The translations under genes were made by a program, and so were the position numbers. From NCBI GenBank assembly GCA_020846875.1, contig JADLDB010000059.1, forward strand, positions 124,001 through 188,000: DNA of 64,000 nucleotides. Direction: 5' to 3'. Source of the stretch: Myxococcales bacterium. GTDB lineage: Bacteria; Myxococcota; Myxococcia; Myxococcales; Myxococcaceae. Under the pieces are notes generated by a model. It had not been told where the DNA came from and did no database searches. It worked only from the letters and a program-made list of their open reading frames with translations. Positions 6,175-24,395 of the stretch are shown in pieces; the first letter of the stretch is position 1; each line of letters opens with the position of its first letter.

Positions 6175-7554
6175 ATGAAGCGGTACTTCATCCACACGTT
6201 CGGCTGCCAGATGAACGTCAACGACACCAACCGCATGGGCGAGGCCCTGGCGAGCGTGGCGTACCGGCCGACGCCCGTCGTGGACAACGCGGACTTGATC
6301 ATCCTGAACACTTGCTCCATCCGCGAGAAGGCCGAGGACAAGATGCTGTCGGCCCTGGGGCGCTACCGGCAGGTGAAGCTGCAGCGCGGGGCGCTGATCG
6401 GCGTGGGCGGCTGCGTGGCCCAGCAGGAGAAGCAGAAGATCCTCGAGAAGGTGCCGTACGTGGACTTCGTCTTCGGGCCCGACAACATCGGCCAGTTGCC
6501 GGAGATCCTCGGCCGGGTGACGAACGACCGGGTGCGGGTGGTGGAGACCGCGTGGGTGGACAGCGAGGCCTACGTCTTCCCCCAGGCCGATCCACAGACG
6601 TCCCGCGGCCGCTGTACCGAGTTCGTCACGGTGATGAAGGGCTGCGACAACGTCTGCGCCTTCTGCGTGGTGCCCCACACCCGCGGCCGGGAGGTGAGCC
6701 GGGCCTTCCCCGAGGTGCTCGACGAGGTGGCGCGCCTCACCACCGTCGGGGTGCGCGAGGTGACGCTCGTCGGGCAGAACGTGAACAGCTACCGCGGGGG
6801 GAGCTCCTTCGCCCAGTTGCTCCTGCGCACCGCCCAGGTCCCCGGCATCGAGCGCGTCCGCTTCACCACCAGCCACCCGCACGATCTCTCCGACGAGCTG
6901 GTGGAGGCGTTCCGGGTGGAGCCGAAGCTGATGCCGCACTTCCACCTGCCGGTGCAGAGCGGCAGCGACGAGGTGCTGGTGCGCATGAAGCGCGACTACA
7001 CCGTGTCCGAGTACCTGGAGCGCCTCGCCAGGCTGCGGGCCGCGCGGCCGGACATCGCCGTCACCACCGACATCATCGTCGGCTACCCCGGAGAGACCGA
7101 GGCCGACTTCCAGAAGACGTACGCGCTGTGCGAGCAGGTCCGCTACGACGGGCAGTTCTCCTTCGTCTACTCTCCGCGCCCGAAGACGGTCGCCGCGCTC
7201 AAGGAGGACGAGTGGGGCCCGGTGGCGCACGAGGTGAAGGTGGAGCGGCTCGAGCGCCTCAACGCCCTGCAGAAGCGGATCAGCGTGGAGCTGATGTCGC
7301 GCCACGTCGGCGGTACGGTGGAGGTGCTGGTGGAGGGCCGCTCGAAGACCAACCAAGCGCGCCGCTTCGGCCGCGCCCCGCACAACCGGGTGGTGAACTT
7401 CGACGGGGACGCGCCGGTGGGCGCCCTGGTGACGGTGCAGGTCGACGTCGCGTCCCAGAGCGCGCTGCTGGGCCGCCAGGTGCGGATCACCTCGCTTGGG
7501 TCCGTGGTGATTCCCGAGGGAGCGATGGAGGCCGAGAGCTGTGTGGTGGCCTGA
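6175..7554 (+). CDS. miaB: tRNA-2-methylthio-N6-dimethylallyladenosine synthase MiaB
   Basis: MiaB is a radical-SAM methylthiotransferase that adds the 2-methylthio group to i6A37 of tRNAs reading UNN codons. The 459-residue protein has the full family layout. The N-terminal UPF0004 domain carries three cluster cysteines (HTFGCQMN with C11, NTCSIREKAE, GGCVAQQEK). The radical-SAM motif CDNVCAFC is at C157, C161 and C164, followed by PHTRGRE. QSGSDEVL and a C-terminal TRAM domain follow (roughly residues 380-445). The length is normal. The ATG start gives the canonical KRYFIHTFGCQMN N-terminus. Confidence 0.97.
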   Translation: MKRYFIHTFGCQMNVNDTNRMGEALASVAYRPTPVVDNADLIILNTCSIREKAEDKMLSALGRYRQVKLQRGALIGVGGCVAQQEKQKILEKVPYVDFVFGPDNIGQLPEILGRVTNDRVRVVETAWVDSEAYVFPQADPQTSRGRCTEFVTVMKGCDNVCAFCVVPHTRGREVSRAFPEVLDEVARLTTVGVREVTLVGQNVNSYRGGSSFAQLLLRTAQVPGIERVRFTTSHPHDLSDELVEAFRVEPKLMPHFHLPVQSGSDEVLVRMKRDYTVSEYLERLARLRAARPDIAVTTDIIVGYPGETEADFQKTYALCEQVRYDGQFSFVYSPRPKTVAALKEDEWGPVAHEVKVERLERLNALQKRISVELMSRHVGGTVEVLVEGRSKTNQARRFGRAPHNRVVNFDGDAPVGALVTVQVDVASQSALLGRQVRITSLGSVVIPEGAMEAESCVVA

Positions 7555-10253: not shown

Positions 10254-12079
10254 CGTCGTTGGAGTGGTGGAAAGCGCGGCCGGCGGGCTTCTCCTTCGAG
10301 CTGCCTGACTTCCCCACGCTGGACGACGCGTGGCTGTGGTTTCTGCTGGAGCGCTCACGGGCGGGCGAGCTGTCGGCGTCGCTCTCGGCGATGTGCGTCT
10401 ACGCGGAGGACGTGCGCCAGGGCCGCTGGCCGGACCGGGTCCCCTCGGAGGTGGCGGTGCAGTCGGTGTACCTGGCGCTGGCGCAGGAACACCTGGCGGG
10501 CGGCAGCCGCGAGCGCTTCCTGGAGGAGGCGCGAGGCTTCTTCGCGCTGATCGCCGCGCACCTCGAGCAGGGGGGCTCACTGATCGACGATCCCTTCCTC
10601 AAGGCCGCCCCCACCGCCCAGCGGTACGTGGCCCAGCTCAAGGAAGATCACCGCCTCTTCGCCGAGGATCTGAAGCGCGCGCGCAAGCTGGAGGTGACGC
10701 TGCCTCCCCAGGCGTCGCCCACCGGGAGCTGGCGCTCCATGCGGCTGCTGGTGCTCGATCGCCCGTCGGCCACCCAATTCAAGCTGTGGGCGCGGCGGGA
10801 CTCGGACTGCGCGCTGCTGCTGGTCCGCCAGCCCGACGGGCTGATCGTCCTCTCCGCGGATCCCACCCGGAAGGTGAAGGTGGGCTGGCTCGCCGCGCAC
10901 CTGTCGGAGAAGGAAGGCAAGCCCTGGTACGACGGCGCGCGACACGAAGGGACGTTGATCGCCTCCCCGAAGGGCGGCACGACGCTGGAGCTCGACGGAG
11001 TGCTGGCGGAGCTGACCAGGCACGCCCGCGTGGTGCGCCGCCGGCCGATCGCCGCGCTGGCCGCCATCGCCGGCAGCGTGTTGATCGTCTTCATCTACCT
11101 CTTCGCGCAGCCTCCGGCGCAAGAGGGCCCGCCGTCCCCGCCGGTGGAGGAGCCGCCGATCACCGGTGCCAAGGGCGCACCCATCCCTCCGGCGAAGGTG
11201 ATCGATCTGCTGGCGGCGGACGACGGCCCCCGCTCCTACGAAGGCTACGCGCTGGTGGCGGGCGTCTGCGGCTACAGCGGCGAGCACGCGCTGAAGGCCC
11301 CCTGCCGGGACGCGCGCGCGGTCCGCGAGCTGCTCGTCTCCCGGCTAGGCTACAAGAAGGAGCACGTGCTGTTCTTCGTCGATCAGCCCGAGCTCGGCGA
11401 GGTGACCGACGGCGCGCCCACCGCCGCCAACCTGAAGCTGGCGGTGGAGAAGTTCCGGGACCGGACCCAGGCCGACGAGCGCAGCAGCTTCTTCTTCTAC
11501 TACTCGGGCCACGGCGGCTACGAGAAGGGCGCGCGGAAGGACTTCGGTGTGCTGCAGCCGTCGGGCTACTTCGAGCAGCCGGATCAGCCGATGAGCGTGC
11601 GCGGCTGGGACATGCAGGAGCTGCTCGATGATCTGCGCAAGGGCGTGCCGTCCAGGCACGTGATGGTGGTGCTCGACGCCTGCTACTCGGGCTGGGCGGT
11701 GGGCGCGAAGGGCGACGAGCGGCTGTCCGACGAGCTCAAGAGCCTGTGGGCCGAGCGCGCCGAGGTGGTGCTGACCGCCGGCACGAAGGGTCAGCGCGCG
11801 TGGGAGGACGAGGCGGAGGCCGCCGCCTGGCAGTGGGGCGGCCACTCCGCGATGACCGCCTTCCTGCTCGAAGGCCTCGGCGCCTCCGGCAGCGCGCAGG
11901 CAGACGCCAACGCCGATCGGGTGATCACCGACGAGGAGCTGGCCCGCTTCCTCAAGGCCCGGGTGCCCGCCGCGGTGAGGGAGTCGAAGCGCGCCGAGCA
12001 GCAGCCCCAGTTCTTCCGCTTCGACGAGCACCTGCCCAAGAGCGGGCAGTTCCTCTTCCTCCCCCCCTCTGCCCCATGA
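10250..12079 (+). CDS. Membrane-anchored caspase-family protease
   Basis: This 609-residue protein has a soluble N-terminal region of unknown fold (residues 1-260). One membrane segment follows at about 265-286, preceded by RVVRRR, then a Pro-rich linker and a caspase/peptidase C14 domain from about 329. The catalytic dyad is visible: His421 in YSGHGG and Cys478 in DACYSG. An EF-hand-like loop (DANADRVITDEE, residue 552 on) follows the catalytic core. The positive-inside rule puts the N-terminus in the cytoplasm and the caspase domain in the periplasm. The ATG overlaps the upstream TGA and the stop overlaps the next ATG, so it is coupled to the protease and the CsgG-like genes. Substrate unknown. 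Confidence 0.9.
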   Translation: MTSLEWWKARPAGFSFELPDFPTLDDAWLWFLLERSRAGELSASLSAMCVYAEDVRQGRWPDRVPSEVAVQSVYLALAQEHLAGGSRERFLEEARGFFALIAAHLEQGGSLIDDPFLKAAPTAQRYVAQLKEDHRLFAEDLKRARKLEVTLPPQASPTGSWRSMRLLVLDRPSATQFKLWARRDSDCALLLVRQPDGLIVLSADPTRKVKVGWLAAHLSEKEGKPWYDGARHEGTLIASPKGGTTLELDGVLAELTRHARVVRRRPIAALAAIAGSVLIVFIYLFAQPPAQEGPPSPPVEEPPITGAKGAPIPPAKVIDLLAADDGPRSYEGYALVAGVCGYSGEHALKAPCRDARAVRELLVSRLGYKKEHVLFFVDQPELGEVTDGAPTAANLKLAVEKFRDRTQADERSSFFFYYSGHGGYEKGARKDFGVLQPSGYFEQPDQPMSVRGWDMQELLDDLRKGVPSRHVMVVLDACYSGWAVGAKGDERLSDELKSLWAERAEVVLTAGTKGQRAWEDEAEAAAWQWGGHSAMTAFLLEGLGASGSAQADANADRVITDEELARFLKARVPAAVRESKRAEQQPQFFRFDEHLPKSGQFLFLPPSAP

Positions 12080-14352
12080 CGACGATCCTCCTTGCCGGCC
12101 TGATGACGGTGGTCGCCGCGACCGAGAAGCCCGTGGTGTCGGTGCTGTACTTCGAGAACCGCACCGGCAGCGCCGAGCTGGACGTGCTGCGCAAGGGCCT
12201 GTCCGAGATGATGGTGACGGATCTCGTCGCCTGGGACGGCGTCACGGTCGTGGAGCGCGAGCGCCTCGAGGCCGTGCTGAGCGAGCTCGAGCTGCAGTCG
12301 ACGAAGGCCTTCGACAAGGCCACCACGGTGAAGGTCGGCAAGCTGGTGGGCGCCGGCTACATCATCACCGGGGCGATGTTCCGGCAGGGCGAGAAGCTGC
12401 GGGTCGACGCGCAGATCGTCCAGGTGCAGGACGGGAAGGTGGTGGCTTCCGCGTCCATCGAGGATCACCAGGACCGGGTGTTCGACATCGAGCAGAAGCT
12501 GGCCGACAGGCTGACGGTCGCCATCGACGTGAAGCTCAAGGATCCGTCCCAGCGCAAGCGGGCGAAGGCCCCCAGCCTGGACGCGCTGCTCCAGTACTCG
12601 AAGGCGATCGATCTGTCCGATCGCGGCCGCTTCGACGAAGCGCAGAAGGCGATGGCGGCGGTGGTGTCGAAGTCGCCCACCTTCGGCATGGCGCGCGAGC
12701 GCAAGGAATACCTGCTCAAGAGGCTCGCGGAGTACGAGGCCCGCCGCAAGGACATGGTGACCGAGGCGGTGGCCGAGCTGGGCAAGGTGACCGAGACGGG
12801 ACTCGCCCAGGTGAAGGACTTCGCGAAGCTCGCCGAGCCTTCGCAGCAGCGCGCGTTGATCCTGCGCGGGCTGCGCGGCCAGTTCCTCGCTCGGCTGCTC
12901 AAGCAGGCGCTGTCCTGGCGCCTCGACTCCCCGCGGGTGGTGAAGCCCGGCAAGGAAGCCGACGCGCTCAAGCTGATGCAGGGGTGGCTGGACAACCAGC
13001 GCAGCCTGCAGGCTGACGCGCAGGTGTGGAACCCCACCGGCGTGAAGACGTCCCTTCGCGTCCCGGACGATCTGGTGGAGAAGGTCAAGGCGGCCGGCTT
13101 CGAGGACGACGTCACCGTCGATCCGAGCCGGCTGGCGATCAACCGCGCCCGCTTCGTGGTGCTGGGCAAGCTCAACGACGGCGCCAACTTCCGCGTCGCG
13201 CCGCCGCTCGGGGTCCTGTCGCCGAAGGAACATGACCTCGCCATGGCCGAGCTGGACGAGGCGATCGTCCGCGCCGAGACGGACTGGAAGCAGGCGGCGC
13301 AGAACGTGAAGGGCTTCTACGAGGGAGTGCTGAGCACCACCCTGGAAGGGAAGGCCGAGATCTTGGAATGGCTCCGGCGTGACGACGACGCCGCGAGCGC
13401 TTGGCAGCGGCTGCTCGACACGCTGCCCAACGGCCACCGCGCCGAGTACGCGGAGAAGAAGATCAAAGAGATCATCGAGGGCAGCGGCTACGAGCGCGGC
13501 CAGCGCGCCAAGTTCGAGGAGGATCTCGCCAACTGCGAGGAGTTCAACCCCGGCACCGAGGTCGACTGGTACCTCTCGCGCGGCGGCCTCAAGGGGCTCG
13601 ACGAGATCGCGAAGCTGCTGGAGGACAAGTGCCTGGGCTTCCCCGGGCTGAAGGTCGGGTGGGAGCGGCTGTACCGCGATCTCGCGAACACCGCGGCCCG
13701 CGCCGAGGACTGCGAGCGGGCGAGGAAGTGGCATCTCCTGAAATACGTGTACGGCGAAGTGGGGCCGGTCGACTTCGACAAGTACCTCACCCGCGACGAG
13801 GGCTGGTGCACCTACGGCCTCACCCAGGACACGCTGCCGTCGCTGGTGCGCGTGAAGGTCGGCGCCCTGGGCTACAAGGACAAGCGCGAGCCGATCATCC
13901 GCGATGGCCTGCGCGAGCTCCTCCCCGAGGAGTTCGCCGCCCGCGGCGTCGCGCTGGAGACCGGCGGCACGTACCACGGGGGAAGTCGCAGCATCTACTT
14001 CGACGTCGACCTCAAGGGCGACGAGGTGGCCATCACCGTCCGCACCTCCGGCGACAACGAGCGCCGGGTGGTGACCTCGAAGAACGGGCAGCTCGTCCTC
14101 TCCGAGCTGCTCGATCCGTACTTCAAGACGCTGCGCACCGGCGCCCCACCGGGCCCGTGGAAGGCGTCGAAGTCGATCTCCGTGGCGCTGGCCTTGGAGT
14201 ACGGGCAGGCGGTTGGCCTCTTCGAAGACCGCAAGTACGCCGAGGCCCGCGCCGCCTTCGACGCCCTGGTGAAGAAGTACCCCAACCTCGGTCCGGCTCG
14301 CGTCCGCGCGCAGCTGGCCGCGATCAAAGAGCGCAAGGAGCAGTCGCGATGA
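12076..14352 (+). CDS. CsgG/FlgO-like protein, first of a tandem pair
   Basis: This 758-residue protein starts with a short hydrophobic leader (MTTILLAGLMTVVAATEK). A CsgG/FlgO/TolB-N-like domain follows (residues 17-160), with the hallmarks SVLYFENRTG, ELDVLRKGLSEMMVTDL, VVERERLEAVL and VGAGYIITGAMF. Proteins with this domain include the curli secretion pore CsgG and the LpoB activator, and usually act at the periplasmic side of the outer membrane. The remaining 600 residues are helical and TPR-like, with scattered cysteines, and are not recognised. The ATG overlaps the caspase stop, and the stop overlaps the start of a paralogue with the same layout. Confidence 0.82.
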   Translation: MTTILLAGLMTVVAATEKPVVSVLYFENRTGSAELDVLRKGLSEMMVTDLVAWDGVTVVERERLEAVLSELELQSTKAFDKATTVKVGKLVGAGYIITGAMFRQGEKLRVDAQIVQVQDGKVVASASIEDHQDRVFDIEQKLADRLTVAIDVKLKDPSQRKRAKAPSLDALLQYSKAIDLSDRGRFDEAQKAMAAVVSKSPTFGMARERKEYLLKRLAEYEARRKDMVTEAVAELGKVTETGLAQVKDFAKLAEPSQQRALILRGLRGQFLARLLKQALSWRLDSPRVVKPGKEADALKLMQGWLDNQRSLQADAQVWNPTGVKTSLRVPDDLVEKVKAAGFEDDVTVDPSRLAINRARFVVLGKLNDGANFRVAPPLGVLSPKEHDLAMAELDEAIVRAETDWKQAAQNVKGFYEGVLSTTLEGKAEILEWLRRDDDAASAWQRLLDTLPNGHRAEYAEKKIKEIIEGSGYERGQRAKFEEDLANCEEFNPGTEVDWYLSRGGLKGLDEIAKLLEDKCLGFPGLKVGWERLYRDLANTAARAEDCERARKWHLLKYVYGEVGPVDFDKYLTRDEGWCTYGLTQDTLPSLVRVKVGALGYKDKREPIIRDGLRELLPEEFAARGVALETGGTYHGGSRSIYFDVDLKGDEVAITVRTSGDNERRVVTSKNGQLVLSELLDPYFKTLRTGAPPGPWKASKSISVALALEYGQAVGLFEDRKYAEARAAFDALVKKYPNLGPARVRAQLAAIKERKEQSR

Positions 14353-16448
14353 CGGCCCTCGTCCTGCTGGCCGCCCTGGCCGCCTCGGAGAAGCCGGTGA
14401 TCTCGGTGATGTACTTCGAGAACCGCACCAACAACGCCGAGCTGGACGTGGCCAGGAAGGGCGTCGCGGACCTGATGATCACCGACCTCGTCTCCTGGGA
14501 CGGCGTGGTGGTGGTGGAGCGCGAGAAGCTGGAGAGCGTGCTGGGCGAGCTCAAGCTGCAGCAGACCAAGGCCTTCGATCCCGCCACCGCGGTGAAGGTG
14601 GGCAAGCTGGTGGGTGCCCAGTTCCTCCTCACCGGCTCGATGATGCTGCAGGGCAAGGAGCTCATCCTCGACGCGCGGCTGATGAAGGTCCAGGACGGGA
14701 GCCAGGTGCTGGCGGCGCGCGCGAAGAACGACCAGGACAAGATCTTCGACCTCGAGCAGGAGCTGGTGGGGAAGGTGATCGCCGCCATCGACTCGAAGCT
14801 CGCGCCGGACGAGGACAAGCGGCGCAAGGCGAAGGTCCCCACCATGGACGCCCTGCTGGCCTACTCCAGGGCGATCGATCTCTCCGACAAGGGCCAGCTG
14901 CAGGAAGCGCAGGCGGCCATGCAGGCCCTGGTGTCGAAGTCGCCCACCTTCCTGCTCGCCCGCGAGCGGCGAGACGTGCTGCTCAAGCGCTTCCAGGAGT
15001 ACGAGCTGAAGAAGAAGGACCTGATCACCGGGGCGGCGCTGGAGCTGGGCAAGCTGATCGACGACGGCCTCAAGGACGAGGCGAAGCTGGACTCGCTCTC
15101 CCAGGACGCGGCGCAGCGCTACCTCACCCTGCGGATGCTCAAAGGGCGCTACATCCTGCGGGTCCTCAGGCAGCACCTGTCCTCCCACGTCGGGCACGTG
15201 CGGGTGCCGCTGCGCGGACACGAGGCCGAGGCGCTGCTCGGCATGCGCGCCTGGCAGGACAACCAGCGCAAGCTGGACGCGGAGCTCGCCCGCGTGCAGA
15301 AGAAGTACCAGTGGATCAGCGCCAGCCTGCCCCCCGCCGAGGCGAAGCTGGTCACCGAGGCGAAGTTCGGCAGCCTGCACCTCCTCGAGTTCACCCCCAG
15401 GGCGAACTTCGTGCTCTTCGGGCGGGCCGACGACGGCGAGGGCTTCATGCTGTCCCCCGCGCTGGGCTTCGTCGATCCGAAGGAGCGCACCCGGGTGCTG
15501 GACGAGCTGGAGAAGCGCATCGTCGCCGCCATCGCCAGCGCCAAGAAGGAGCCGCAGCAGGAGTACCAGGTCCAGCAGCTCATCGAGCTCAAGGCCGCCG
15601 CGGCGTTGGACTTGGGCAACGTGGACGCCTCCGTCACCGAGCTCCAGCGCTTCCTCGACAGCTTCCCCACCTCCAGCAACGCCAGCCGCTTCGAGGAGCG
15701 GATCAAGGAGCAGCTGTCCGGCGACATTCGCGAGCTGGAGAAGTCCCAGCGCTGGGCCAAGGCGCTCAAGGGCTGCGACGGGATGGATCTGATCGTCGGC
15801 GCCGACTCGTCCTCGGACTACCTGCGCAAGCAGGGCCTGGTCGGGCTGGAGAAGATGGCGAAGGACATGGAGACGGCGTGCCCGCCGACGAAGAAGAACC
15901 AGCGGTACGTGGCGCAGGTGTACAGGGACATCGGCCAGGACGCGGCGCAGCACGACGACTGCGGCCTGTACCAGGCGATGACCGCGAAGAGCCTGGCGCT
16001 CGGCTACTCGGTGCGGGACACCCTGGGTTACGCCCGGCACACCCCGTGGTGCGACGTGAAGCCGGTGCTGAAGGACGTCGCCTGGTTCTTCTCGAAGATG
16101 GATCGCGACTGGGAGATGGAGTTCGTCCAGGACCTCTCTTCCGCGTGGTCGGGCGAGGTGCTGACGCTGAAGGGGACGGCGCGCCTCGGCACGCCCGACG
16201 GGGTGGTGAACGAGCCCTTCGTCCTCAAGGCCACCCAGACGCGCGAGGGCTGGCGCTGCACCTCGGCGTCGCTCGACTACCACATGTACGGACCCATCAC
16301 CGGGGAGTGCGCGGTGACGGTGACGAAGCTGGCCTCGGGCAGGGGCGACTACGACGAAGGCACCTTCAGCGCGTCCTTCGCCACCGGCGACAAGATGCGC
16401 AAGAAGCTCGAGCTCTCCGACGGCCAGTTCAAGCTGAAGCGGCAGTGA
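14349..16448 (+). CDS. CsgG/FlgO-like protein, second of a tandem pair
   Basis: This 699-residue protein is a paralogue of the preceding product. It shares the leader, the CsgG-like domain (SVMYFENRTNNAELDVARKG, VVVEREKLESVLGELKLQQ, VGAQFLLTGSMM) and the helical region containing YSRAIDLSDKG and SPTFLLARERR. The C-terminal 150 residues differ and look like beta-strands (VLTLKGTARLG, YMYG-like region, GTFSASFATGDKM). Tandem duplication followed by C-terminal divergence is the simplest history. It is the last gene of the caspase chain and ends 3 bases from the convergent CorA-like gene. Confidence 0.82.
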   Translation: MTALVLLAALAASEKPVISVMYFENRTNNAELDVARKGVADLMITDLVSWDGVVVVEREKLESVLGELKLQQTKAFDPATAVKVGKLVGAQFLLTGSMMLQGKELILDARLMKVQDGSQVLAARAKNDQDKIFDLEQELVGKVIAAIDSKLAPDEDKRRKAKVPTMDALLAYSRAIDLSDKGQLQEAQAAMQALVSKSPTFLLARERRDVLLKRFQEYELKKKDLITGAALELGKLIDDGLKDEAKLDSLSQDAAQRYLTLRMLKGRYILRVLRQHLSSHVGHVRVPLRGHEAEALLGMRAWQDNQRKLDAELARVQKKYQWISASLPPAEAKLVTEAKFGSLHLLEFTPRANFVLFGRADDGEGFMLSPALGFVDPKERTRVLDELEKRIVAAIASAKKEPQQEYQVQQLIELKAAAALDLGNVDASVTELQRFLDSFPTSSNASRFEERIKEQLSGDIRELEKSQRWAKALKGCDGMDLIVGADSSSDYLRKQGLVGLEKMAKDMETACPPTKKNQRYVAQVYRDIGQDAAQHDDCGLYQAMTAKSLALGYSVRDTLGYARHTPWCDVKPVLKDVAWFFSKMDRDWEMEFVQDLSSAWSGEVLTLKGTARLGTPDGVVNEPFVLKATQTREGWRCTSASLDYHMYGPITGECAVTVTKLASGRGDYDEGTFSASFATGDKMRKKLELSDGQFKLKRQ

Positions 16449-16451
16449 CGG

Positions 16452-18737
16452 CTACCGCTTGCGCCAGCTGATCAGCCTCGACGCCAGCACCGCCCCGTAC
16501 ACCAGCGCCGAGAAGAAGGCGGTGTACATGAGGAAGATCTTCCAGCCGCCCGTCACCCAGGGCAGGCCCAGCCGCAGATCCATCTCGTTGAACTGCGCGC
16601 CGGAGAAGAAGCCGGAGACGATGGTGATCGGCAGGAAGAGGAAGAGCAGCACCCCCACCATGTTCTCGAAGCCCTCGCGGCGGAATTGATCGAGCTCGGT
16701 GGTCTGGCTGCGCAGCGCGTCCACCGTCTCGTCCATGCCGTGCAGCTCGCGCCAGGCGCCGTAGCGGGCGTCGAGATCGGGATCGTCGCTGACCCGCGCG
16801 TACCAGAGCGAGTTGGTGAAGAGCATCACGTCGCCGCGCAGGGTGCGTGACGGGGCCAGCGACTGCCAGCGGGTGGTGCGGCTCTTCCGCTCGATCTCAC
16901 CCATGCGGCGGGTGATCTCGAAGGCCACGTAGCGCTGGCCGGTGGTGAGCAGGAAGAGCGCGAAGTCGCGATCGAAGGCCGGGGGCGCCGCCACGTCCTC
17001 CAGCATCAGCTCCAGCCGCGCGCCGCCGGTGGAGGTGAACCAGTGCTCCACGTCCCGCCCTACGTGCACCCGCCGCGCCTCGATCGCCGACTCCGACGGC
17101 AGGTTCTGCAGCGTGGGCTGCTCCCCCGAGGCCAGCGCGTGAAACAGCCCCTGCACGCTGCGCGAGGTGTCCAGCATGCTGGAGCGCGCGCGGTTCACCC
17201 GGTACGCGCCGTACACCAGCCAGCGCTGCTGGGTGATCGGCTCCAGCACGTCCTGAAGCTCGGCCAGCACCAGCCGATCCAGGGCGCTGCCCGCCGCCAG
17301 CGCCGCCTGCCGGGCCGCCAACTCGAGCAACGTCGCCTTCGTCTGCGTGTCCTCTACCCAGACCAGGGCCAGGTTGCTGGCGTAGAGCGACAGGTGCACC
17401 GTGGCATCGCCGGCGCGCCGCTCCAGGTGCACCACGTCCGCCCCCGCCGCGTTGGAGAGGAAGGACGCCTCCACCGAAGGCAGGAAGCCCGACAGGGTGG
17501 TGTGCCAGCTCGAGCGCTTCCACCCGCGCGCCTCGAGGTGCTCGGGCTCGATCGCCCCCTTCACCCGGAAGGGCTTCAGGTACAGCGTGCGCGACGAGGT
17601 GACGAAGATGTGGCGGCCCACGTTGAAGCGCTGCCACACCGCCTCCCACAGCTCCTCCCGGGACAGCCGCGTGCCGACGAAGGGCGGCGCGACGATCGTG
17701 CTGCGGCCCTTGGCCCAGGCGTAGCCGTCCGAGTACCAGGGATCCGACAGGCCCTCGAGCTCGGGGGGCTGGTTGGTGAACCGGGGCTTGCCTTTGGCGC
17801 GCGGCTGGCCATCGGGCCCGGTGTCCCCTTCGAGGAGGTCCAGGGTGTACGCGAGATCCGCCAGGGTGCCTGGGCTCTCCGGCGCGATGGAGACGGTGTG
17901 GCGGCCCCAGGCGTTGGCTTCGTTGGGGGCATGGATGGCGAGCAGCTCGAAGCCGCGCTTGTAGCTGGAGTTCTCCTGGTCCGGCCGTGCCAGGAGCTTC
18001 AGCACCGTCACGTCCTGCGGCGAAGAGAGGAAGAGCGCGTCGATCCGCCGGAAGGTGCTGCCCGGCTGGTTGTCGATGGGGAGGTCGAGCTGCACCTTCC
18101 ACCCCCGCGAGAGCTCCGTCTTGTAGAGATCCGCGTCCGCCTTGAGGCGCCGGATGATCCGCTTGAGGATCAGCTCCTCCGGAAGCCTGGCGATCCCCGC
18201 GAAGTCCAGCGCGCGATCCATCACCCGGACGATCAATTCCGCCAGCGGCTTCGACGGGCCCGGCGCCGGCGTGCGGAACACCTGCATCGACGCGTAGAAC
18301 ACCGACGCCAGCGCGCGCTCGTAGTGGCCGGCGCTCTCGGTGCGGCCCTGCTCCCACTCGCTCACGTACTCGATCAGCCCCTCGAGGTCCTCCGGCCAGC
18401 GGTGGTGCAGCACGCGGTGCGTCGCCAGCACCGCGGCGGTGGTGCAGTCCAGGGTGGGATCGTGGAGCCGGAAGCGCAACGGGAAGGACAGCGCGTCGAG
18501 CGCCTGGGCCGATCGCAGCACCGCCTCGGTCGTCGATCGCAGGTTGGCGCTGCGCCACTGGGGCAGCTTCCACGACAGCATGCGCGGGTGGGGCGGCAGC
18601 GTCGCCTCGCGGGTGCCCACCCCCAGGAACAACTCCCCCTCGTGGGGCTCCTGGCCCGGCGGCGCCCGCTCGTGGCTCCACGTCACCCGCGCGGGATCGA
18701 GCAGCGCGTCGAGGGTCTGTTGCAGCGCGGCGTCCAT
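16452..18737 (-). CDS. CorA-like membrane protein lacking the GMN motif
   Basis: The last 130 of 761 residues look like the CorA membrane module: a long helix, a first membrane segment (VGVLLFLFLPITIVSGFF), a short loop, a second membrane segment (IFLMYTAFFSALVYGAVL) and a basic tail WRKR. The position of the CorA selectivity motif GMN reads GAQ (SGAQFNEM). Middle parts match the CorA funnel only in helical character. The N-terminal half contains DPTLDC and SDPWYSDG segments that recall DHH-phosphoesterase-like proteins, but the catalytic aspartates and histidines are not convincingly present. It is likely an inner-membrane protein with a large cytoplasmic domain; magnesium transport is doubtful. 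It is encoded opposite the two flanking caspase clusters. Confidence 0.7.
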   Translation of the reverse strand: MDAALQQTLDALLDPARVTWSHERAPPGQEPHEGELFLGVGTREATLPPHPRMLSWKLPQWRSANLRSTTEAVLRSAQALDALSFPLRFRLHDPTLDCTTAAVLATHRVLHHRWPEDLEGLIEYVSEWEQGRTESAGHYERALASVFYASMQVFRTPAPGPSKPLAELIVRVMDRALDFAGIARLPEELILKRIIRRLKADADLYKTELSRGWKVQLDLPIDNQPGSTFRRIDALFLSSPQDVTVLKLLARPDQENSSYKRGFELLAIHAPNEANAWGRHTVSIAPESPGTLADLAYTLDLLEGDTGPDGQPRAKGKPRFTNQPPELEGLSDPWYSDGYAWAKGRSTIVAPPFVGTRLSREELWEAVWQRFNVGRHIFVTSSRTLYLKPFRVKGAIEPEHLEARGWKRSSWHTTLSGFLPSVEASFLSNAAGADVVHLERRAGDATVHLSLYASNLALVWVEDTQTKATLLELAARQAALAAGSALDRLVLAELQDVLEPITQQRWLVYGAYRVNRARSSMLDTSRSVQGLFHALASGEQPTLQNLPSESAIEARRVHVGRDVEHWFTSTGGARLELMLEDVAAPPAFDRDFALFLLTTGQRYVAFEITRRMGEIERKSRTTRWQSLAPSRTLRGDVMLFTNSLWYARVSDDPDLDARYGAWRELHGMDETVDALRSQTTELDQFRREGFENMVGVLLFLFLPITIVSGFFSGAQFNEMDLRLGLPWVTGGWKIFLMYTAFFSALVYGAVLASRLISWRKR

Positions 18738-18865: not shown

Positions 18866-19585
18866 ATGAACTCGCCCATGTCCCGCCTCCTCGCCCTCGC
18901 GTGGCTGTTCGCGATCCCCGCGATCGCCGCCCCGCCGGCCCCGGCCAACACCGCGCGGGTGTCGGTGCTGTACTTCGACGTGCAGTCCACCCAGGAGGCG
19001 CTCAAGGTCTTCAACAAGGGGCTGTCGGAGCTGATGATCGCCGACCTCGCTCAGAGCACGGATCTCACCGTGGTCGAGCGCTCGCGCCTCGAGGAGATCC
19101 TCGCCGAGCTCAAGCTGGGTGAGACGCGCTACGCCGATCCCGCCACCGCCGCGAAGATCGGCAAGCTGGTGGGCGCGCAGTTCATGGTCGCGGGAACGAT
19201 CGTCGAGAACCCGGTCCTGTCGGCCAAGGGCGGGCCGGGGCGCTTCAAGCTGTTGGTGAAGATCATCGACGTCGAGCACGCCACCGTGGTGCCCCAGTCG
19301 ACGATCAAGGTGGACCTCGATCCCGACGACGTCTTCGGCGCCGAGGAGGCGGTGGTGAAGGAGATCGCGAAGTTCCTGGTCACCGCCGGCAAGGCGACGC
19401 AGGCCGGCGAGCCCGCGAAGAAGGCCCACAAGCTGCCGGTGGGCACCGCGGTGAAGTACTCGAAGGCCCTCGACGCGAAGGACAAGAAGAACAAGGACCA
19501 GGCGGTCAAGCTGCTCAACGAGGTGGTGAAGGAGCAGCCGGACTTCAAGCTGGCGCAGCTGGATCTCCTCACGCTGACGAAGTGA
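18866..19585 (+). CDS. CsgG/FlgO-like protein of the second caspase cluster
   Basis: This 239-residue protein has a signal peptide (SRLLALAWLFAIPAIAAPP) and then a CsgG/FlgO-like domain. The hallmarks are the same as in the 12076 and 14349 products: SVLYFDVQST, KGLSELMIADL, VVERSRLEEILAELKLG and VGAQFMVAGTIV. It has only a short helical tail (KYSKALDAKDKKNKDQAVK) in place of their 500-600-residue extensions, so it may be the minimal form. The ATG at 18866 was chosen; an in-frame ATG at 18878 gives a tidier signal peptide. The next gene starts 4 bases after its stop. Confidence 0.82.
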   Translation: MNSPMSRLLALAWLFAIPAIAAPPAPANTARVSVLYFDVQSTQEALKVFNKGLSELMIADLAQSTDLTVVERSRLEEILAELKLGETRYADPATAAKIGKLVGAQFMVAGTIVENPVLSAKGGPGRFKLLVKIIDVEHATVVPQSTIKVDLDPDDVFGAEEAVVKEIAKFLVTAGKATQAGEPAKKAHKLPVGTAVKYSKALDAKDKKNKDQAVKLLNEVVKEQPDFKLAQLDLLTLTK

Positions 19586-19589
19586 GCCC

Positions 19590-20834
19590 ATGGCCGTCGA
19601 GCTCGAGCCCCTGTTGCAGAAGCTGAGCGGCCTGGCGCCGCTCTTTGGCCGCGCCCGCGACGATCTCGACGCGATGGTCAGCCGCGGCCGCGCCGGGGAC
19701 TTCAAGGGCGTGATGCAGAACGCCCGCCTGGTGCTGGAGGCCGTGCTGAGGTCGCTGGTCACCGAGGAGCTCAAGCAGACGCCCGGCAAGGCGATGCTGG
19801 ACGAGCTGGTGACGAAGTTCCGCCAGCAGGCCAACGCAGGCATCATCCCCACCAACGTCCTCGCGCACATGGGGACGGTGCAGGCCTGGGGCAACCTGTC
19901 CTCGCACGATCACGCGGGCAGCCTGGCCGACGCGCCCGTGCAGGTCGGCCAGGAGGAGGCAGTAGCCAGCCTGAACTCCATGGCGGCGATCCTCACCTGG
20001 TACGCGAACAAGCGCGGCCTGGCCGCTACCCCCGCGGCCGGCAGCGCTCCCGCGGTGGCCACGCCCTTCCAGGGAGCCGCGGTGATCGCCCGCAAGGAGG
20101 GCGCGCCGCCGCCCGCGAAGTCGAAGCTGCCCCTGGTGGGCGCCGGGGTCGGCCTGCTCGCGATCGCCGGCGTGGTGGCCGTCGTCTCCTTGAGGCCGTC
20201 CGGGAGCGGGACCGGCACGGGCCCGGGAAAGACGGAGCAACCCTTCACCGCGCTCGACGCCCTCTACGGCTCCTGGAAGGAGCCCGTCCCGCCGCCCTCG
20301 TGCCGCCGCGCCGAGGAGGCCGAGCGCCTGGCGCAGAACGTCCGCAACGTGAACGCCCTGCGGCTCATCGACAGTCCTTCTCCGGAGGCGGCCTACCTGC
20401 TGGCCCGCGCCACCTTCGAGGACCTGAAGCAGAAGAGCCCGGCGCTGGACGCGGCGCTGGCCTGCCCGGGCTTCGCCAACGCGCAGTACCTCGCTGGGAA
20501 GATCGCCATCGCCGAAGGCCGCCTCGACGACGCGCTGGCCTCGCTCAAGTCCGCCACCACCCAGGCGCCGAAGTTCCTCGACGCGCGCGCCTCGTTGGCC
20601 GGCATCATGCTGCAGCAGCAGGAGGTGGACGCCGCGCTGGCCGAGGCGGAGAAGCTGATCTCTGCCGATCCCGACTACGCCGCGGGGTACCTGCTGCGCT
20701 TCTCGGGCCGTGTCCTCAAGGGCGATCGCGACGCGGCAATGAAGGATCTCTGCACGGCGGTGAACAAGGGATCCGCCACGGCGCGCCAGAAGCTCGAGTC
20801 CATCAATGGCTCGTGTGAGGGCGTGGCCCCGTGA
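19590..20834 (+). CDS. Membrane protein with DUF4145-like N-domain and TPR-like tail
   Basis: This 414-residue protein has an N-terminal helical domain resembling DUF4145 (GVMQNARLVLEAVLRSLV, NVLAHMGTVQAWGNLSSHD, EAVASLNSMAAILTWY). Such domains occur on conflict-system and signalling proteins. A linker, one membrane segment (LVGAGVGLLAIAGVVAVVSL, about residues 178-198) and a C-terminal TPR-like region follow. Lys/Arg residues before the membrane segment suggest that the N-domain is cytoplasmic and the TPR region periplasmic. The stop overlaps the GTG of the secreted caspase (GTGA). It could link a cytoplasmic signal to the periplasmic CsgG-like protein and caspase, but that is inference. Confidence 0.72.
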   Translation: MAVELEPLLQKLSGLAPLFGRARDDLDAMVSRGRAGDFKGVMQNARLVLEAVLRSLVTEELKQTPGKAMLDELVTKFRQQANAGIIPTNVLAHMGTVQAWGNLSSHDHAGSLADAPVQVGQEEAVASLNSMAAILTWYANKRGLAATPAAGSAPAVATPFQGAAVIARKEGAPPPAKSKLPLVGAGVGLLAIAGVVAVVSLRPSGSGTGTGPGKTEQPFTALDALYGSWKEPVPPPSCRRAEEAERLAQNVRNVNALRLIDSPSPEAAYLLARATFEDLKQKSPALDAALACPGFANAQYLAGKIAIAEGRLDDALASLKSATTQAPKFLDARASLAGIMLQQQEVDAALAEAEKLISADPDYAAGYLLRFSGRVLKGDRDAAMKDLCTAVNKGSATARQKLESINGSCEGVAP

Positions 20835-22135
20835 CGCGTGCACTCCTCATCGGCGTGCTCCTCTCGAGCGCGCTGGCCTGGGGAGCCCCGCTGCGGCTGG
20901 CGGTGGTCTACGGGCACAACGGGGGCGCCGGGGCCCGGGCGCCGCTCAAGTACGCCGAGGCCGACGCGGCCCGGGTCGCGCGCGCCCTGAAGGAGGTGGG
21001 AGGCGTGGCGCCCGGCGACGTGCGGCTGCTCCTCGGGCGCCCGGTGGGAGAGTTGGAGGCCGCGCTGGCCTGGGCGAAGACGCGCGCTGCCGCCAACCCG
21101 CAGACCTCCCTCGTCGTCTACCTCTCCAGCCACGCCGACGCGGAGAAGGGCCTGATCCCGGGCGGCGAGGCGCTGGCCTGGGCGAAGCTCAAGGCCCTCG
21201 TCGCGGCCAGCGGCGCGAAGGCCCGCGTCACCATCGTCGACGGCTGCCAGTCCTCCGGTCTCATCGAGGTCAGCGCGAAGGAGGCGCCCACCTTCTCCAT
21301 CTCCGCCACCGACGAGCTGACGGTGAAGGGCGACGCGTTCATCACCTCGTCCGCGTCCGACGAGCCCTCCCTGGAGGCCGGGCAACTGCAGGGCAGCGTC
21401 TTCACCCAGCACTTCCTGGCCGGTCTGCGTGGCGCCGCGGATCGCTCGGGCGACGGGCGCGTCTCGCTGGAAGAGGTCTACCGGTTCGCCTTCGAGCGCA
21501 CCACCGAGGGCCAGAGCGGCCAGCACCCCGGCTTCGCCACCCGGCTCTCGGGGTACGGCGAGCTGGTGATGGCCTCCCCGAGCGTGGGATCCGGCTTGCT
21601 GGTCCCCGAGGGCGTGGAGCGGATCGTCGTCCGCGAGGTGGCTGATCGCACCCCGCTGGTCTCCGCGCGCAGGCCCGAGGCCCGCCGGCTGGCGATCCCT
21701 CCCGGCGCGTGGCTGGTGGAGGTCGAGCAGTCCGCCGGGATGCGCGAGGGCAGGGTGCAGGTGGCGAAGGGCGCCTTCACCTCGGTGGAGGTCGATCAAC
21801 TCGGCGCCGTGGCCCGGGCCACCAGCCTGGTGCGCCTCGAAGCCGACGCGCTCTGCTACGAGGTGAAGGCCGGGCGCGCCGATCCCCGCGTGCAGGCGTT
21901 GATCCCCGAGCTGACGGCCGTCGCGCCCGCCTGTCCGATGGGACGCGCGCCCACCGCCACGTTGATCCTCGAGCCGGCTTCGAAGGGAGCGCTGCGCGTC
22001 TACGCCTCGCCGGCCCAGCCCGGGGCCCTGGACGTCGCGCGCCCGGCTCAGCAGAGCGCCCAGTTGGTCGAAGCGGTGCGCGCCTGGGTCGCCGAGCAGG
22101 GCGCCAACCTCGCGTCGACAAAGAGGAAGCCCTGA
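20831..22135 (+). CDS. Secreted caspase-family protease
   Basis: This 434-residue protein has a signal peptide (LLIGVLLSSALAWG) followed directly by a caspase/C14 fold (RLAVVYGHNGG, ADAARVARALKEVGG). The dyad reads His101 in YLSSHAD and Cys139 in VDGCQSS. The second residue after Cys is Ser, not the usual YSG pattern, so the active site is somewhat divergent. A textbook EF-hand loop DRSGDGRVSLEE begins at residue 204. The C-terminal half is beta-rich, and its last part is helical. The signal peptide places the enzyme in the periplasm or outside. The GTG start overlaps the upstream stop. Confidence 0.82.
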   Translation: MTRALLIGVLLSSALAWGAPLRLAVVYGHNGGAGARAPLKYAEADAARVARALKEVGGVAPGDVRLLLGRPVGELEAALAWAKTRAAANPQTSLVVYLSSHADAEKGLIPGGEALAWAKLKALVAASGAKARVTIVDGCQSSGLIEVSAKEAPTFSISATDELTVKGDAFITSSASDEPSLEAGQLQGSVFTQHFLAGLRGAADRSGDGRVSLEEVYRFAFERTTEGQSGQHPGFATRLSGYGELVMASPSVGSGLLVPEGVERIVVREVADRTPLVSARRPEARRLAIPPGAWLVEVEQSAGMREGRVQVAKGAFTSVEVDQLGAVARATSLVRLEADALCYEVKAGRADPRVQALIPELTAVAPACPMGRAPTATLILEPASKGALRVYASPAQPGALDVARPAQQSAQLVEAVRAWVAEQGANLASTKRKP

Positions 22136-22161
22136 CGGACCCGTGGTAGACCTTTCGGCGC

Positions 22162-22611
22162 ATGCAACCCGTCGAGGCCCTTCGCGCCTGCCCGCTCCTT
22201 CAGGGGTTCACCGACACGGGGCTCGGCATCCTCGCCGGCATCTGCACCTCGCGCACCTACCCGCAGGGCACGCCGCTGTTCGCCGAGAACATGGTGTCGG
22301 ACTCGCTGCTGGTGATCGCCGACGGCAAGGTGGCCCTGAGCATGCGCTCCGACAAGGGTGAGCTGCCCATGGGTGAGCTGGGGCCGGGAGACTGGCTGGG
22401 CGAGCTGTCGTTGATCCAGACCGGCCAGCGCGCCTGCACCGCCACGGCCACCTCCGCCGTCACCGCCTTCGAGATCCGTCAGGCCGACTTCCAGAAGCTG
22501 ATGGCCACCAAGCCCCAGGCCTGCATGAAGCTGCTGATGGCCATCTGCACCCACTTCGGCCAGAAGGTGTTGGCCAACAAGGAAGCGCTCAAGACCCTGC
22601 TGAAGGTGTAG
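22162..22611 (+). CDS. Stand-alone cyclic-nucleotide-binding domain protein
   Basis: This 149-residue protein is one Crp/Fnr-type sensor domain. The beta-roll is visible (PLFAENMVSDSLLVIADGKVAL, read in two parts), as is the phosphate-binding cassette ELGPGDWLGELSLIQTGQR with A/C following. A C-terminal helix follows, and there is no helix-turn-helix, so it is not a transcription factor by itself. The GEL of the cassette is kept while the following R is displaced by the QTGQR segment, so ligand binding is plausible but not certain. It sits 26 bases after the caspase gene and may read out a nucleotide signal for that cluster. Confidence 0.85.
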   Translation: MQPVEALRACPLLQGFTDTGLGILAGICTSRTYPQGTPLFAENMVSDSLLVIADGKVALSMRSDKGELPMGELGPGDWLGELSLIQTGQRACTATATSAVTAFEIRQADFQKLMATKPQACMKLLMAICTHFGQKVLANKEALKTLLKV

Positions 22612-22674: not shown

Positions 22675-23685
22675 ATGACGCGCCTCGCTCTCGCCGCGGC
22701 CCTCGCCCTTTCTCTCTTCGCGACTCCGCAAGCGTTCGCCGCCAGCCAGGGTGACTGGTTCGCCAGTCTCTACACCGGCGAAGGCGTGGAGCTCCGCAAC
22801 GACGAGCGGATCTTCACCCTGTTCGCGCTCTTCAACGCGCTGGGCTTCGATCAGGGCCCGGTGACGCGCACCCAGCCGGTGCCCAAGGTGACCTACTCGG
22901 CCGCGCGGCAGTTGGTGCGCGCGAAGGTGCTGGGCGGCGACCCCGAGGTGCGCAAGGCGGCCGACGCCTACTTCGACTCCCACGCCGCGCCCATGGGCCG
23001 GTACCTGAGCTGGGCCGTGCAGGCCGATGCGCCGCCCTTCGCCGCGGGACCGAAGTCGAAGGAGCTCGCCGACCTCAAGGGCTTCGAGCAGGTGATGGCC
23101 AAGGCCTGGGCGGGGTGGAAGCTGGACGAGGTGATGGCCCAGGTGCAGCCCGAGTACCGCAAGTCGCTCAAGCTGTACCTCTCGGGCGTCGACGGTCCGC
23201 TCTCGAAGGCGCGCGCGCTGCTCAAGGTGCCGGAGTCCCAGGAGGTGCTGCTGTTGGTCAACCTGCTCGACGCTCAGGATCAAGTGCGGGCAGTGAAGGG
23301 CGAGAGGGGTGAAGCGTTCCTCATCGCCGGCCCCAGCGACAAGCCGAACGTGGAAGGGCTGCTCAAGGCCTTCGCGGCCCTCACCGTGGAGCCGGCGGTG
23401 GCCAGGCACGCGGCGAAGTGGAGCGGCGGGGCGGCGGTGCTGCGCGAGGCCCAGCTGGCCGGGGCCAACGAGCAGACGGTGGCCGATTACGTCACCAGCC
23501 TGATCAGCCTGGCGGCGGCGATGAAGGCCATGGATGCCAGCGACGCCGCGTATGACGCGGCCGCGGCGAAGGGCTACTTCGGAATCAAGGACGTCTCGAA
23601 GCTGTTCGAGGACGGCAAGCCCGTCGAGAGCTGGGCGCTCGACGCCATGCAGCGGATCGAGACTCGCCGCCCGGCGAAGAAGTAG
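22675..23685 (+). CDS. Secreted protein of unknown function
   Basis: This 336-residue protein has a good signal peptide (RLALAAALALSLFATPQAFA, cleavage before ASQG). The mature part is helical, with no HExxH or other catalytic motif that I can see. It contains FALFNALGFDQGP and a conserved-looking Tyr/Arg-rich helix (AARQLVRAKVLGGD). It is followed 8 bases later by the DedA gene. No family is recognised. Confidence 0.75.
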   Translation: MTRLALAAALALSLFATPQAFAASQGDWFASLYTGEGVELRNDERIFTLFALFNALGFDQGPVTRTQPVPKVTYSAARQLVRAKVLGGDPEVRKAADAYFDSHAAPMGRYLSWAVQADAPPFAAGPKSKELADLKGFEQVMAKAWAGWKLDEVMAQVQPEYRKSLKLYLSGVDGPLSKARALLKVPESQEVLLLVNLLDAQDQVRAVKGERGEAFLIAGPSDKPNVEGLLKAFAALTVEPAVARHAAKWSGGAAVLREAQLAGANEQTVADYVTSLISLAAAMKAMDASDAAYDAAAAKGYFGIKDVSKLFEDGKPVESWALDAMQRIETRRPAKK

Positions 23686-23693
23686 CGCCTCCT

Positions 23694-24395
23694 TTGGAAC
23701 AGCTTCTCACTAGCCTGTTCGACAGCGTCGGCGGGGCCTTCTCGTACCTGCTCGTCCTCGGGATCCTGCTGTTGTGCGGAGTGGGCCTGCCCGTGCCCGA
23801 GGACGTGTCGCTGATCCTCGGCGGCTCGCTCGTCTACCAGGGCAAGGCGCAGCTCTTCTTCATGATGGTGGTGGGCTACGTGGGGATCATCCTCGGCGAC
23901 TCAATCATGTTCGCCCTGGGGCGCCGCTTCGGGTCGCAGGTGGGCGTGAAGCAGGGCGGCTTCTTGAGCCGCATCATCACCCCGGCCAAGCGGGCGCGGG
24001 TGGAAGAGCTCTTCAAGAAGCACGGCGAGAAGGTGGTGATGGTGGCGCGCTTCCTGCCCGGGGTGCGGGCCCCCACGTACTTCACCGCCGGCTCGGTGGG
24101 GATGAAGTACTCGCACTTCCTCTTCTTCGACTCGGTGGCCGCGCTCGCCTCGGCGCCGGCCTTCGTCTACCTGGGCTTCCGCTTCGGTGGAGAGCTGGAG
24201 TACCTGCTCCAGCAGATCCGCAAGGGCCAGCGGGGAGTGCTGCTCGCCCTGGCCGTGCTCGTCGTCGTCGGCTTCTTCGTCTCCCGCTGGCGCTCCAAGC
24301 GCGAGAAGCGGATCGAGGCGGAGGCGCTCAAGAAGCAACAAGAGCAGCAGCTGGAGCGCATCGAGCCGGCGCGCGACAGCTCAAGCGCGCTGTGA
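23694..24395 (+). CDS. DedA-family membrane protein
   Basis: This 233-residue inner-membrane protein of the DedA/VTT (SNARE-associated) family is linked to lipid-carrier flipping and membrane homeostasis. The N-terminal re-entrant region GVGLPVPEDVSLILGGSL, the GDSIMFALGRRFG segment and the signature ARFLPGVRAPTYFTAG are present, followed by further membrane segments and a basic, Gln-rich cytoplasmic tail. The start is TTG at 23694; there is no ATG that would keep the first helix intact. Confidence 0.9.
   Translation: MEQLLTSLFDSVGGAFSYLLVLGILLLCGVGLPVPEDVSLILGGSLVYQGKAQLFFMMVVGYVGIILGDSIMFALGRRFGSQVGVKQGGFLSRIITPAKRARVEELFKKHGEKVVMVARFLPGVRAPTYFTAGSVGMKYSHFLFFDSVAALASAPAFVYLGFRFGGELEYLLQQIRKGQRGVLLALAVLVVVGFFVSRWRSKREKRIEAEALKKQQEQQLERIEPARDSSSAL

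What the first reader, a model, noticed from the sequence alone, without database searches (positions are those of the whole stretch)
18866..22611. Second, differently built caspase-CsgG cluster nearby
Less than 3 kb on, a CsgG-like protein (same motifs, shorter), a one-span protein with DUF4145-like and TPR parts, and a secreted caspase repeat the theme, followed by a lone cyclic-nucleotide-binding domain. The two clusters share CsgG-like and caspase parts but differ in accessory proteins, as if built from the same kit. The nucleotide-binding protein may be a sensor for the pathway.
Basis: partly seen in the sequence, partly recalled or inferred. Interest (0 to 1): 0.62.

Follow-up and report, generated by a model that had tools for sequence, protein, structure and literature searches.

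The report
Periplasmic caspase–CsgG–receptor gene block
Two neighbouring gene groups in a myxobacterium turn out to be one optional block that pairs caspase-type and HtrA-type proteases in the cell envelope with a membrane receptor, and the nearby nucleotide-binding gene belongs to an older, separate neighbourhood.

Summary
The genes are as described: CsgG-like protein, one-span DUF4145/TPR protein, secreted caspase with intact His/Cys, lone cyclic-nucleotide-binding domain. The reading needs correcting in three ways. (1) The two clusters are one accessory block. In 8 relatives without it, miaB is followed within 27–447 bp by cNMP–P0009–DedA; here 14.6 kb with both clusters lies between miaB and cNMP. 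(2) The caspases are the optional part. Of 22 genomes with the receptor, 10 carry the secreted caspase and the HtrA-like protease, and 9 of these also the membrane caspase; 12 carry none of the three. (3) The cNMP gene goes with the older flank, so a sensor role has no genomic support. The receptor is modular: its N-domain lacks the HEPN catalytic arginine (Gln in 24 of 24) and is also fused to Ser/Thr kinases; in one genome a kinase replaces it on the same TPR ectodomain. The three CsgG domains are ancient paralogues; the two caspases are not sisters. Most likely an inner-membrane receptor/CsgG signalling module to which a three-protease envelope unit (HtrA, TM-caspase, secreted caspase) attaches. 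Order of action and trigger are inferred. No published description was found in the searches listed.

The parts
7974..10253 (+). HtrA/trypsin-like serine protease with FG-GAP-like region; N-terminus reads as a lipobox (VILAGC)
   Evidence: Pfam Trypsin_2 1.4e-24; present in exactly the 10 Casp2-positive receptor genomes plus G138; lipobox read from sequence
10250..12079 (+). Casp1: N-terminal domain, one TM (267-285), caspase domain predicted periplasmic
   Evidence: Pfam Peptidase_C14 4.2e-14; TM; N-domain homologous to P0010 residues 112-367, hhalign E 8.8e-7
12076..14352 (+). CsgG1, long CsgG-like protein with TPR
   Evidence: Pfam CsgG 8.6e-14; long clade
14349..16448 (+). CsgG2, long CsgG-like protein, 43% identical to CsgG1
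   Evidence: Pfam CsgG 1.7e-12
16452..18737 (-). P0010: membrane protein, two C-terminal TM (weakly CorA-like), N-half shared with Casp1
   Evidence: no Pfam match; PADLOC CorA 2.5e-4; in 33 of 145 genomes
18866..19585 (+). CsgG3: short secreted CsgG/TolB_N-like domain plus TPR-like tail
   Evidence: Pfam CsgG 1.1e-15 over profile 3-111 of 210; no lipobox in 18 of 18; short clade
19590..20834 (+). Receptor: DUF4145 (HEPN-type) domain 1-145, TM 183-201, TPR ectodomain 216-414
20831..22135 (+). Casp2: secreted caspase, His101/Cys139, EF-hand-like loop 204-215, C-terminal extension
   Evidence: Pfam 7.4e-10; His and Cys in 10 of 10
22162..22611 (+). stand-alone cNMP-binding domain; part of the older flank, not of the block
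   Evidence: Pfam 2.7e-18; GE(L/I) and GQR in 18 of 18; follows miaB directly where the block is absent
22675..23685 (+). P0009: secreted protein of the flank, weakly gluzincin-like predicted fold without HExxH
   Evidence: in 62 of 145 genomes
23694..24395 (+). DedA-like membrane protein of the flank (family name recalled)
   Evidence: reading of sequence; four hydrophobic spans; next to P0009 in 30 of 30 loci
6175..7554 (+). miaB, the other edge of the slot (gene name recalled)
   Evidence: reading of sequence; precedes cNMP in 8 genomes without the block there

Best explanation
The region is one accessory block (about 7.6-22.1 kb) in a fixed slot between miaB and cNMP-P0009-DedA. It has two layers. 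The signalling core is a short secreted CsgG-like protein, an inner-membrane receptor (cytosolic HEPN-type DUF4145 domain, one TM, periplasmic TPR), usually P0010, and in part of the genomes a long CsgG-like protein. The optional layer is a three-protease unit: HtrA-like lipoprotein, TM-anchored caspase (Casp1) and secreted caspase (Casp2). Inferred working: the CsgG-like and TPR parts sense or assemble on an envelope signal in the periplasm; the receptor passes it inward through an R-less, probably non-RNase DUF4145 domain that couples to Ser/Thr kinase signalling; Casp1, whose N-terminal domain is shared with P0010, links an internal state to periplasmic caspase output; HtrA and the two caspases act as a regulated envelope proteolysis cascade. 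Shown: domains, predicted localisation, slot, co-inheritance, domain swaps, conserved catalytic residues. Inferred: order of action, trigger, substrates.
For: Slot: miaB to cNMP gap 27-447 bp in 8 genomes without the block there, 14.6 kb here. Co-inheritance in 22 receptor genomes: HtrA and Casp2 in the same 10, Casp1 in 9 of them, none of the three in 12; Fisher for Casp1 x Casp2 2e-5; G135 lacks all three while its five receptor-bearing congeners have them. Swaps: DUF4145-TM-TPR (22 genomes), kinase-TM-TPR (G139), DUF4145-kinase (G049-G052). Casp1/P0010 shared domain, hhalign E 8.8e-7. Caspase His/Cys 10 of 10; no Arg at the HEPN position in 24 of 24. N-domain mean pairwise identity 73% against 41% for the TPR part.
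Against: Co-inheritance rests on about 4 gain/loss changes; independent pairs go the same way 3-4 of 4, sign test p 0.125, too few to be significant. Many genomes are fragmented MAGs, so absences are soft; G088 (78% complete) lacks Casp1. G138 has HtrA, Casp1 and a short CsgG but no full receptor, so the proteases can exist without it. No substrate, cleavage or interaction evidence. DUF4145 assignment is at or below the Pfam cut-off; its fold was not tested alone. The own genome has no DUF4145-kinase fusion.
Confidence: 0.5

Rival explanations
1. The proteases and the receptor/CsgG core are two unrelated accessory sets that share one permissive slot; they are neighbours without a common pathway.
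For: The core exists without the proteases in 12 of 22 genomes, and G138 has HtrA and Casp1 with a short CsgG but no full receptor. Few independent events.
Against: Overlapping coding ends (GTGA between receptor and Casp2), Casp2 placed between receptor and cNMP in 10 of 10 loci that have it, and the domain shared by Casp1 and P0010.
Confidence: 0.25
2. The block is an anti-phage or suicide system: periplasmic caspases and the HEPN-type domain kill the cell on infection, akin to known bacterial conflict systems with caspases.
For: Patchy presence in one slot; Casp1 matches a PADLOC caspase model at 2.7e-16; HEPN and caspase domains are typical conflict domains (PMC3710099 and PMC7159879, passages).
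Against: Only single-domain PADLOC matches; the HEPN arginine is missing in 24 of 24; Casp2 has an export signal and Casp1 a TM before its caspase domain; slow evolution of the N-domain (73% mean identity).
Confidence: 0.15
3. The CsgG-like proteins are outer-membrane export pores and the caspases process an exported product.
For: Pfam CsgG scores well above cut-off for all three.
Against: Only the N-terminal half of the CsgG profile is matched (3-111, 6-98, 6-98 of 210); no lipobox in 18 of 18 CsgG3; a profile search of solved structures puts the CadC periplasmic domain first (0.0038), CsgG at 0.056.
Confidence: 0.05

Closest known systems
TM-anchored HEPN receptors (Anantharaman et al. 2013, PMC3710099)
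   Same: A DUF4145/HEPN domain predicted cytosolic, tied to a TM helix, proposed to read surface signals
   Different: Here HEPN is N-terminal with a periplasmic TPR ectodomain, the catalytic Arg is Gln, and the domain is exchangeable with a Ser/Thr kinase; none of the three TM groups described there has this build (section 15 read)
EACC1-associated caspase systems (Kaur et al. 2020, PMC7159879)
   Same: Caspase plus membrane partner in multicellular bacteria; both window caspases have NF047832 as their only NCBIfam hit
   Different: Scores far under that model's cut-off (55.5 and 51.9 against 140); CsgG is not mentioned in that paper (0 occurrences)
CsgG / LpoB / FlgO / CadC periplasmic domain group
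   Same: CsgG-like domain; profile of the short family also hits CadC (0.0038) and CsgG (0.056) structures
   Different: Not a lipoprotein, half the CsgG profile missing, TPR-like tail
Secreted myxobacterial caspases beside ECF-sigma-like genes
   Same: Casp2 belongs to this multi-copy family, 6 copies in this genome
   Different: Casp2 sits with the receptor instead of a sigma-factor gene and has a shorter C-terminal part
Receptor Ser/Thr kinases with TPR ectodomain
   Same: G139 carries kinase-TM-TPR with the homologous ectodomain between a long and a short CsgG
   Different: In 22 genomes the kinase position is taken by the DUF4145 domain

Membership tests
Caspase, Peptidase_C14 | Profile score over cut-off | tested here: met
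   39.3 bits against 21.4 (Casp2), 53.2 against 21.4 (Casp1)
Caspase, Peptidase_C14 | Catalytic His and Cys | tested here: met
   H101 and C139 in 10 of 10 Casp2; SGHG and DACYSG in 7 of 7 Casp1
EACC1-type caspase system | NF047832 score over cut-off | tested here: not met
   55.5 and 51.9 against 140
EACC1-type caspase system | Adjacent EACC1 membrane gene | not tested
   no model of EACC1 was run
CsgG secretion channel | Lipidated N-terminus | tested here: not met
   0 of 18 CsgG3 with lipobox
CsgG secretion channel | Full-length CsgG domain with transmembrane hairpins | tested here: inconclusive
   profile 112-210 unmatched in P0001, 99-210 in P0005 and P0006; no model of CsgG3 was folded
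HEPN RNase (DUF4145) | Profile score over cut-off | tested here: inconclusive
   23.1 bits, equal to the cut-off, in the window; 18.5-20.8 in four relatives
HEPN RNase (DUF4145) | Conserved Arg and His of the active motif | tested here: not met
   His106 kept, Arg position is Gln98 in 24 of 24 (20 rows of A2, 4 kinase fusions of A6); Arg present there in 3 of 4 other DUF4145 proteins read
HEPN RNase (DUF4145) | HEPN helical fold | tested here: inconclusive
   model all-helical in 6-141; structure lists filled by the TPR part
Cyclic-nucleotide-binding domain | Profile and phosphate-cassette Glu and Arg | tested here: met
   66.2 bits against 27.5; GE(L/I) and GQR in 18 of 18 (role of the residues recalled)
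Known anti-phage system | PADLOC system components | tested here: inconclusive
   10 proteins scanned; Casp1 hits one caspase model, cNMP hits TIR-effector models, P0008 protease models and P0010 a CorA model, all as single proteins; whole systems are not scored by the tool

The most novel reading that the evidence does not exclude
A bacterial three-protease cascade in the cell envelope, HtrA lipoprotein to membrane caspase to secreted caspase, attached as a removable unit to an inner-membrane receptor whose cytosolic part is a catalytically dead HEPN domain interchangeable with a Ser/Thr kinase: periplasmic caspase signalling that crosses the inner membrane in both directions.
Probability: 0.3. 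Interest if true: 0.78.

Novelty: new variant of a known kind. Interest (0 to 1): 0.58.

Why it matters
The bacterial caspase systems I know of (recalled, and PMC7159879 passages) are mostly cytosolic conflict systems. A caspase pair coupled to an HtrA-type protease and placed in the periplasm, with a swappable receptor, would give a testable case of regulated envelope proteolysis, or programmed death, in bacteria with multicellular development. The swap of a HEPN-type domain for a kinase on one ectodomain would also show a HEPN-type domain used for signalling instead of RNA cleavage.

Tried and rejected
Rejected: cNMP as the pathway's sensor. Two independent clusters. My own label 'DUF3422' for P0010, used in script outputs and in the scripts after them, came from memory and Pfam does not support it. 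CsgG as a pore: see membership test.

Led nowhere: Foldseek for P0009 gave no match under E 0.001; VIA-align gave at best Z 5.7 (rmsd 3.6, 145 aligned), with many gluzincin metallopeptidases in the list but under the level the tool calls meaningful. Fold lists for the receptor were filled by TPR proteins, so the N-domain was not tested. Profile search of Casp2 against solved structures: nothing at E 0.1. Paper searches: 'caspase, CsgG, bacteria' 19 papers, none on topic by title and abstract start; 'CsgG, metacaspase' 0; 'EACC1, caspase' 2; searches gave nothing on this arrangement by listing. 'Not in print' rests on these searches of an open-licence library only. Profile comparison of the N-domain with other DUF4145 proteins was weak (hhalign probability 5); two rows in that comparison were misread frames (L102, L103) and one (L106) was not extracted, so the Arg position rests on reading L100, L101, L104 and L105 by eye.

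Full report
Observation. The ORFs at 18866-19585, 19590-20834, 20831-22135 and 22162-22611 are real and carry the stated domains: CsgG (1.1e-15), DUF4145 (23.1 bits, equal to the cut-off) with TPR, caspase (7.4e-10), cNMP (2.7e-18). The receptor has one hydrophobic span at 183-201; by the positive-inside rule (recalled) the DUF4145 part is cytosolic and the TPR part periplasmic. CsgG3 and Casp2 begin with signal-peptide-like stretches (read from sequence; hydrophobic start). Receptor and Casp2 overlap by 4 bp (read from coordinates).

Relatives. The receptor was searched in 145 genomes of the order. 22 genomes have the DUF4145-TM-TPR protein; a search with the TPR ectodomain alone finds 24 of 145: these 22, G139 (kinase form) and G093 (a short frame). 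A search with the N-domain in 195 genomes of the phylum finds 24: the same 22, plus G138 and G161, both partial matches. A scan of one genome per species in GTDB 220 gave 23 loci, all myxobacterial by title, among them Archangium lansinium and Hyalangium versicolor; it needs exact short peptide patterns, so distant relatives would be missed. Twenty-one relatives' loci were fetched with flanks and compared with the window, 22 loci in all; several contigs end inside the block.

One block, one slot. In the window the order is miaB, a small gene, HtrA, Casp1, CsgG1, CsgG2, P0010 (reverse), CsgG3, receptor, Casp2, cNMP, P0009, DedA. Five related loci keep HtrA-Casp1-long CsgG-P0010(reverse)-CsgG3-receptor-Casp2-cNMP-P0009-DedA, all of genus g26 (L042, L043, L044, L046, L054). 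Thirty P0009 loci were examined. In 8 of them (L146, L151-L157) miaB is followed by cNMP, P0009 and DedA, the miaB-cNMP gap being 27, 101-108 (six) or 447 bp; here it is 14.6 kb. In the window and in L037, L038, L047 and L055 the block or part of it lies between miaB and cNMP on one contig. In L062 (G093) a TM-TPR stretch without DUF4145 lies there, apparently a remnant. In five genomes (L050, L052, L053, L056, L057) the receptor lies elsewhere, without cNMP; three of these (G081, G082, G083) are among the 8 with the empty slot. P0009 occurs in 62 of 145 genomes. The cNMP gene therefore belongs to the older flank. It keeps the Glu and Arg of the binding cassette in 18 of 18, so it may well bind a nucleotide, but nothing ties it to the caspases.

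Core and optional proteases. Of the 22 receptor loci, a short CsgG is beside the receptor in 21 (not L048, G088), P0010 in 20 (not G053, G085), cNMP in 17, Casp2 in 10 (clade of the short CsgG; P0010). Thirty genomes were searched for Casp1, Casp2 and HtrA: the 22 plus eight chosen as neighbours or partial hits. HtrA is in 11 of 30: the 10 Casp2-positive genomes and G138. Casp1 is in 10 of 30 at strong score (9 of the 10 Casp2-positive, and G138); an eleventh, weak hit (G082, 1.1e-13) was not counted. Casp2 orthologues were called by position at the locus, because related secreted caspases occur in all 30 genomes. Fisher for Casp1 and Casp2 on the 22: 9/1/0/12, p 2e-5. On the receptor tree both traits need 4 changes; in independent pairs they go the same way in 3-4 of 4, sign test p 0.125, so the association is consistent but not significant once kinship is counted. 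G135 lacks all three while its five receptor-bearing congeners have them; G135 is 89% complete.

Domain swaps. The receptor N-domain (mean pairwise identity 73%, TPR part 41%, 20 rows) is fused to a protein kinase in G049, G050, G051 and G052 (Pfam Pkinase 1.4e-44 and 1.4e-47 in the two scanned). In G138 a frame with a kinase ends in a partial N-domain at a contig edge. In G139 a kinase-TM-TPR protein carries the homologous ectodomain (6.3e-50; TM at 391) and lies between a long and a short CsgG. The N-domain and a kinase thus replace one another and also join one another. The motif in the N-domain is TVQAWGNLS(S/A/T)HD in 24 of 24 distinct proteins (A2 and the fusions of A6); three of four other DUF4145 proteins read have Arg where Gln98 stands. 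The HEPN review gives the motif as mostly conserved (80%) in DUF4145 and proposes TM-HEPN receptors that sense surface stimuli (PMC3710099, passages and section 15). I infer a signalling, not RNA-cleaving, role.

Caspases and CsgG. Tree of 40 CsgG rows: long (17 rows, with CsgG1 and CsgG2) and short (23 rows, with CsgG3) types separate at 100/100; two rows duplicate others. Tree of 27 caspase rows: Casp1 (10 rows) against Casp2 plus secreted paralogues (17 rows) at 100/100, with a long branch between. Casp2 keeps His101 and Cys139 in 10 of 10 and an EF-hand-like loop D204-x-(S/T)-x-D208-(G/R)-x-(V/I)-S-L-(D/E)-E215 in 10 of 10 (the reading as calcium-binding is recalled motif knowledge). Casp1's N-terminal domain matches P0010 residues 112-367 (hhalign probability 91.5, E 8.8e-7), tying cluster 1 to the divergent gene between the clusters.

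Mechanism. Best reading: periplasmic CsgG-like proteins and the TPR ectodomain form the sensing part, the R-less DUF4145 domain transmits to kinase signalling, and HtrA, Casp1 and Casp2 form an optional envelope protease unit. The steps 'HtrA activates Casp1' and 'Casp1 activates Casp2' are guesses from protease types and co-inheritance. Two unrelated sets in a shared slot is the main rival.

Noticed in passing
window 22675-23685: P0009, secreted and well conserved with cNMP and DedA (62 of 145 genomes); predicted model weakly resembles gluzincin metallopeptidases but has no HExxH motif.
   Followed up: partly
L066-L070 (own genome), L074, L075: A multi-copy family of secreted caspases (6 in the window's genome); several lie beside ECF-sigma-like genes (label by reading) and carry a long C-terminal part.
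   Followed up: partly
L094 10001-11665, L095 4616-6352, L096 8877-10526, L098 8492-9571: The receptor's N-domain fused to a Ser/Thr kinase (Pfam-scanned in L094 and L095), without CsgG or caspase genes of this block beside it.
   Followed up: partly
L064 6539-11544 (G139): Long CsgG, kinase-TM-TPR with the receptor's ectodomain, and short CsgG side by side: the kinase version of the core.
   Followed up: yes
L062 982-1506 (G093): TM-TPR remnant of the receptor without its DUF4145 part, still in the slot between miaB and cNMP.
   Followed up: partly
window 20831-22135, residues 204-215 of the product: EF-hand-like loop invariant at the key positions in 10 of 10 Casp2, apart from one G to R; possible calcium control.
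   Followed up: no
window 12076-16448: CsgG1 and CsgG2 are tandem relatives (43%); the relatives' loci read show only one long CsgG at this place.
   Followed up: partly
window 2691-5672 (-), 39853-41694 (-), 41746-43029 (-): Further kinase-like and HtrA-like genes in the window (by similarity); the first lies upstream of miaB in several relatives too.
   Followed up: no
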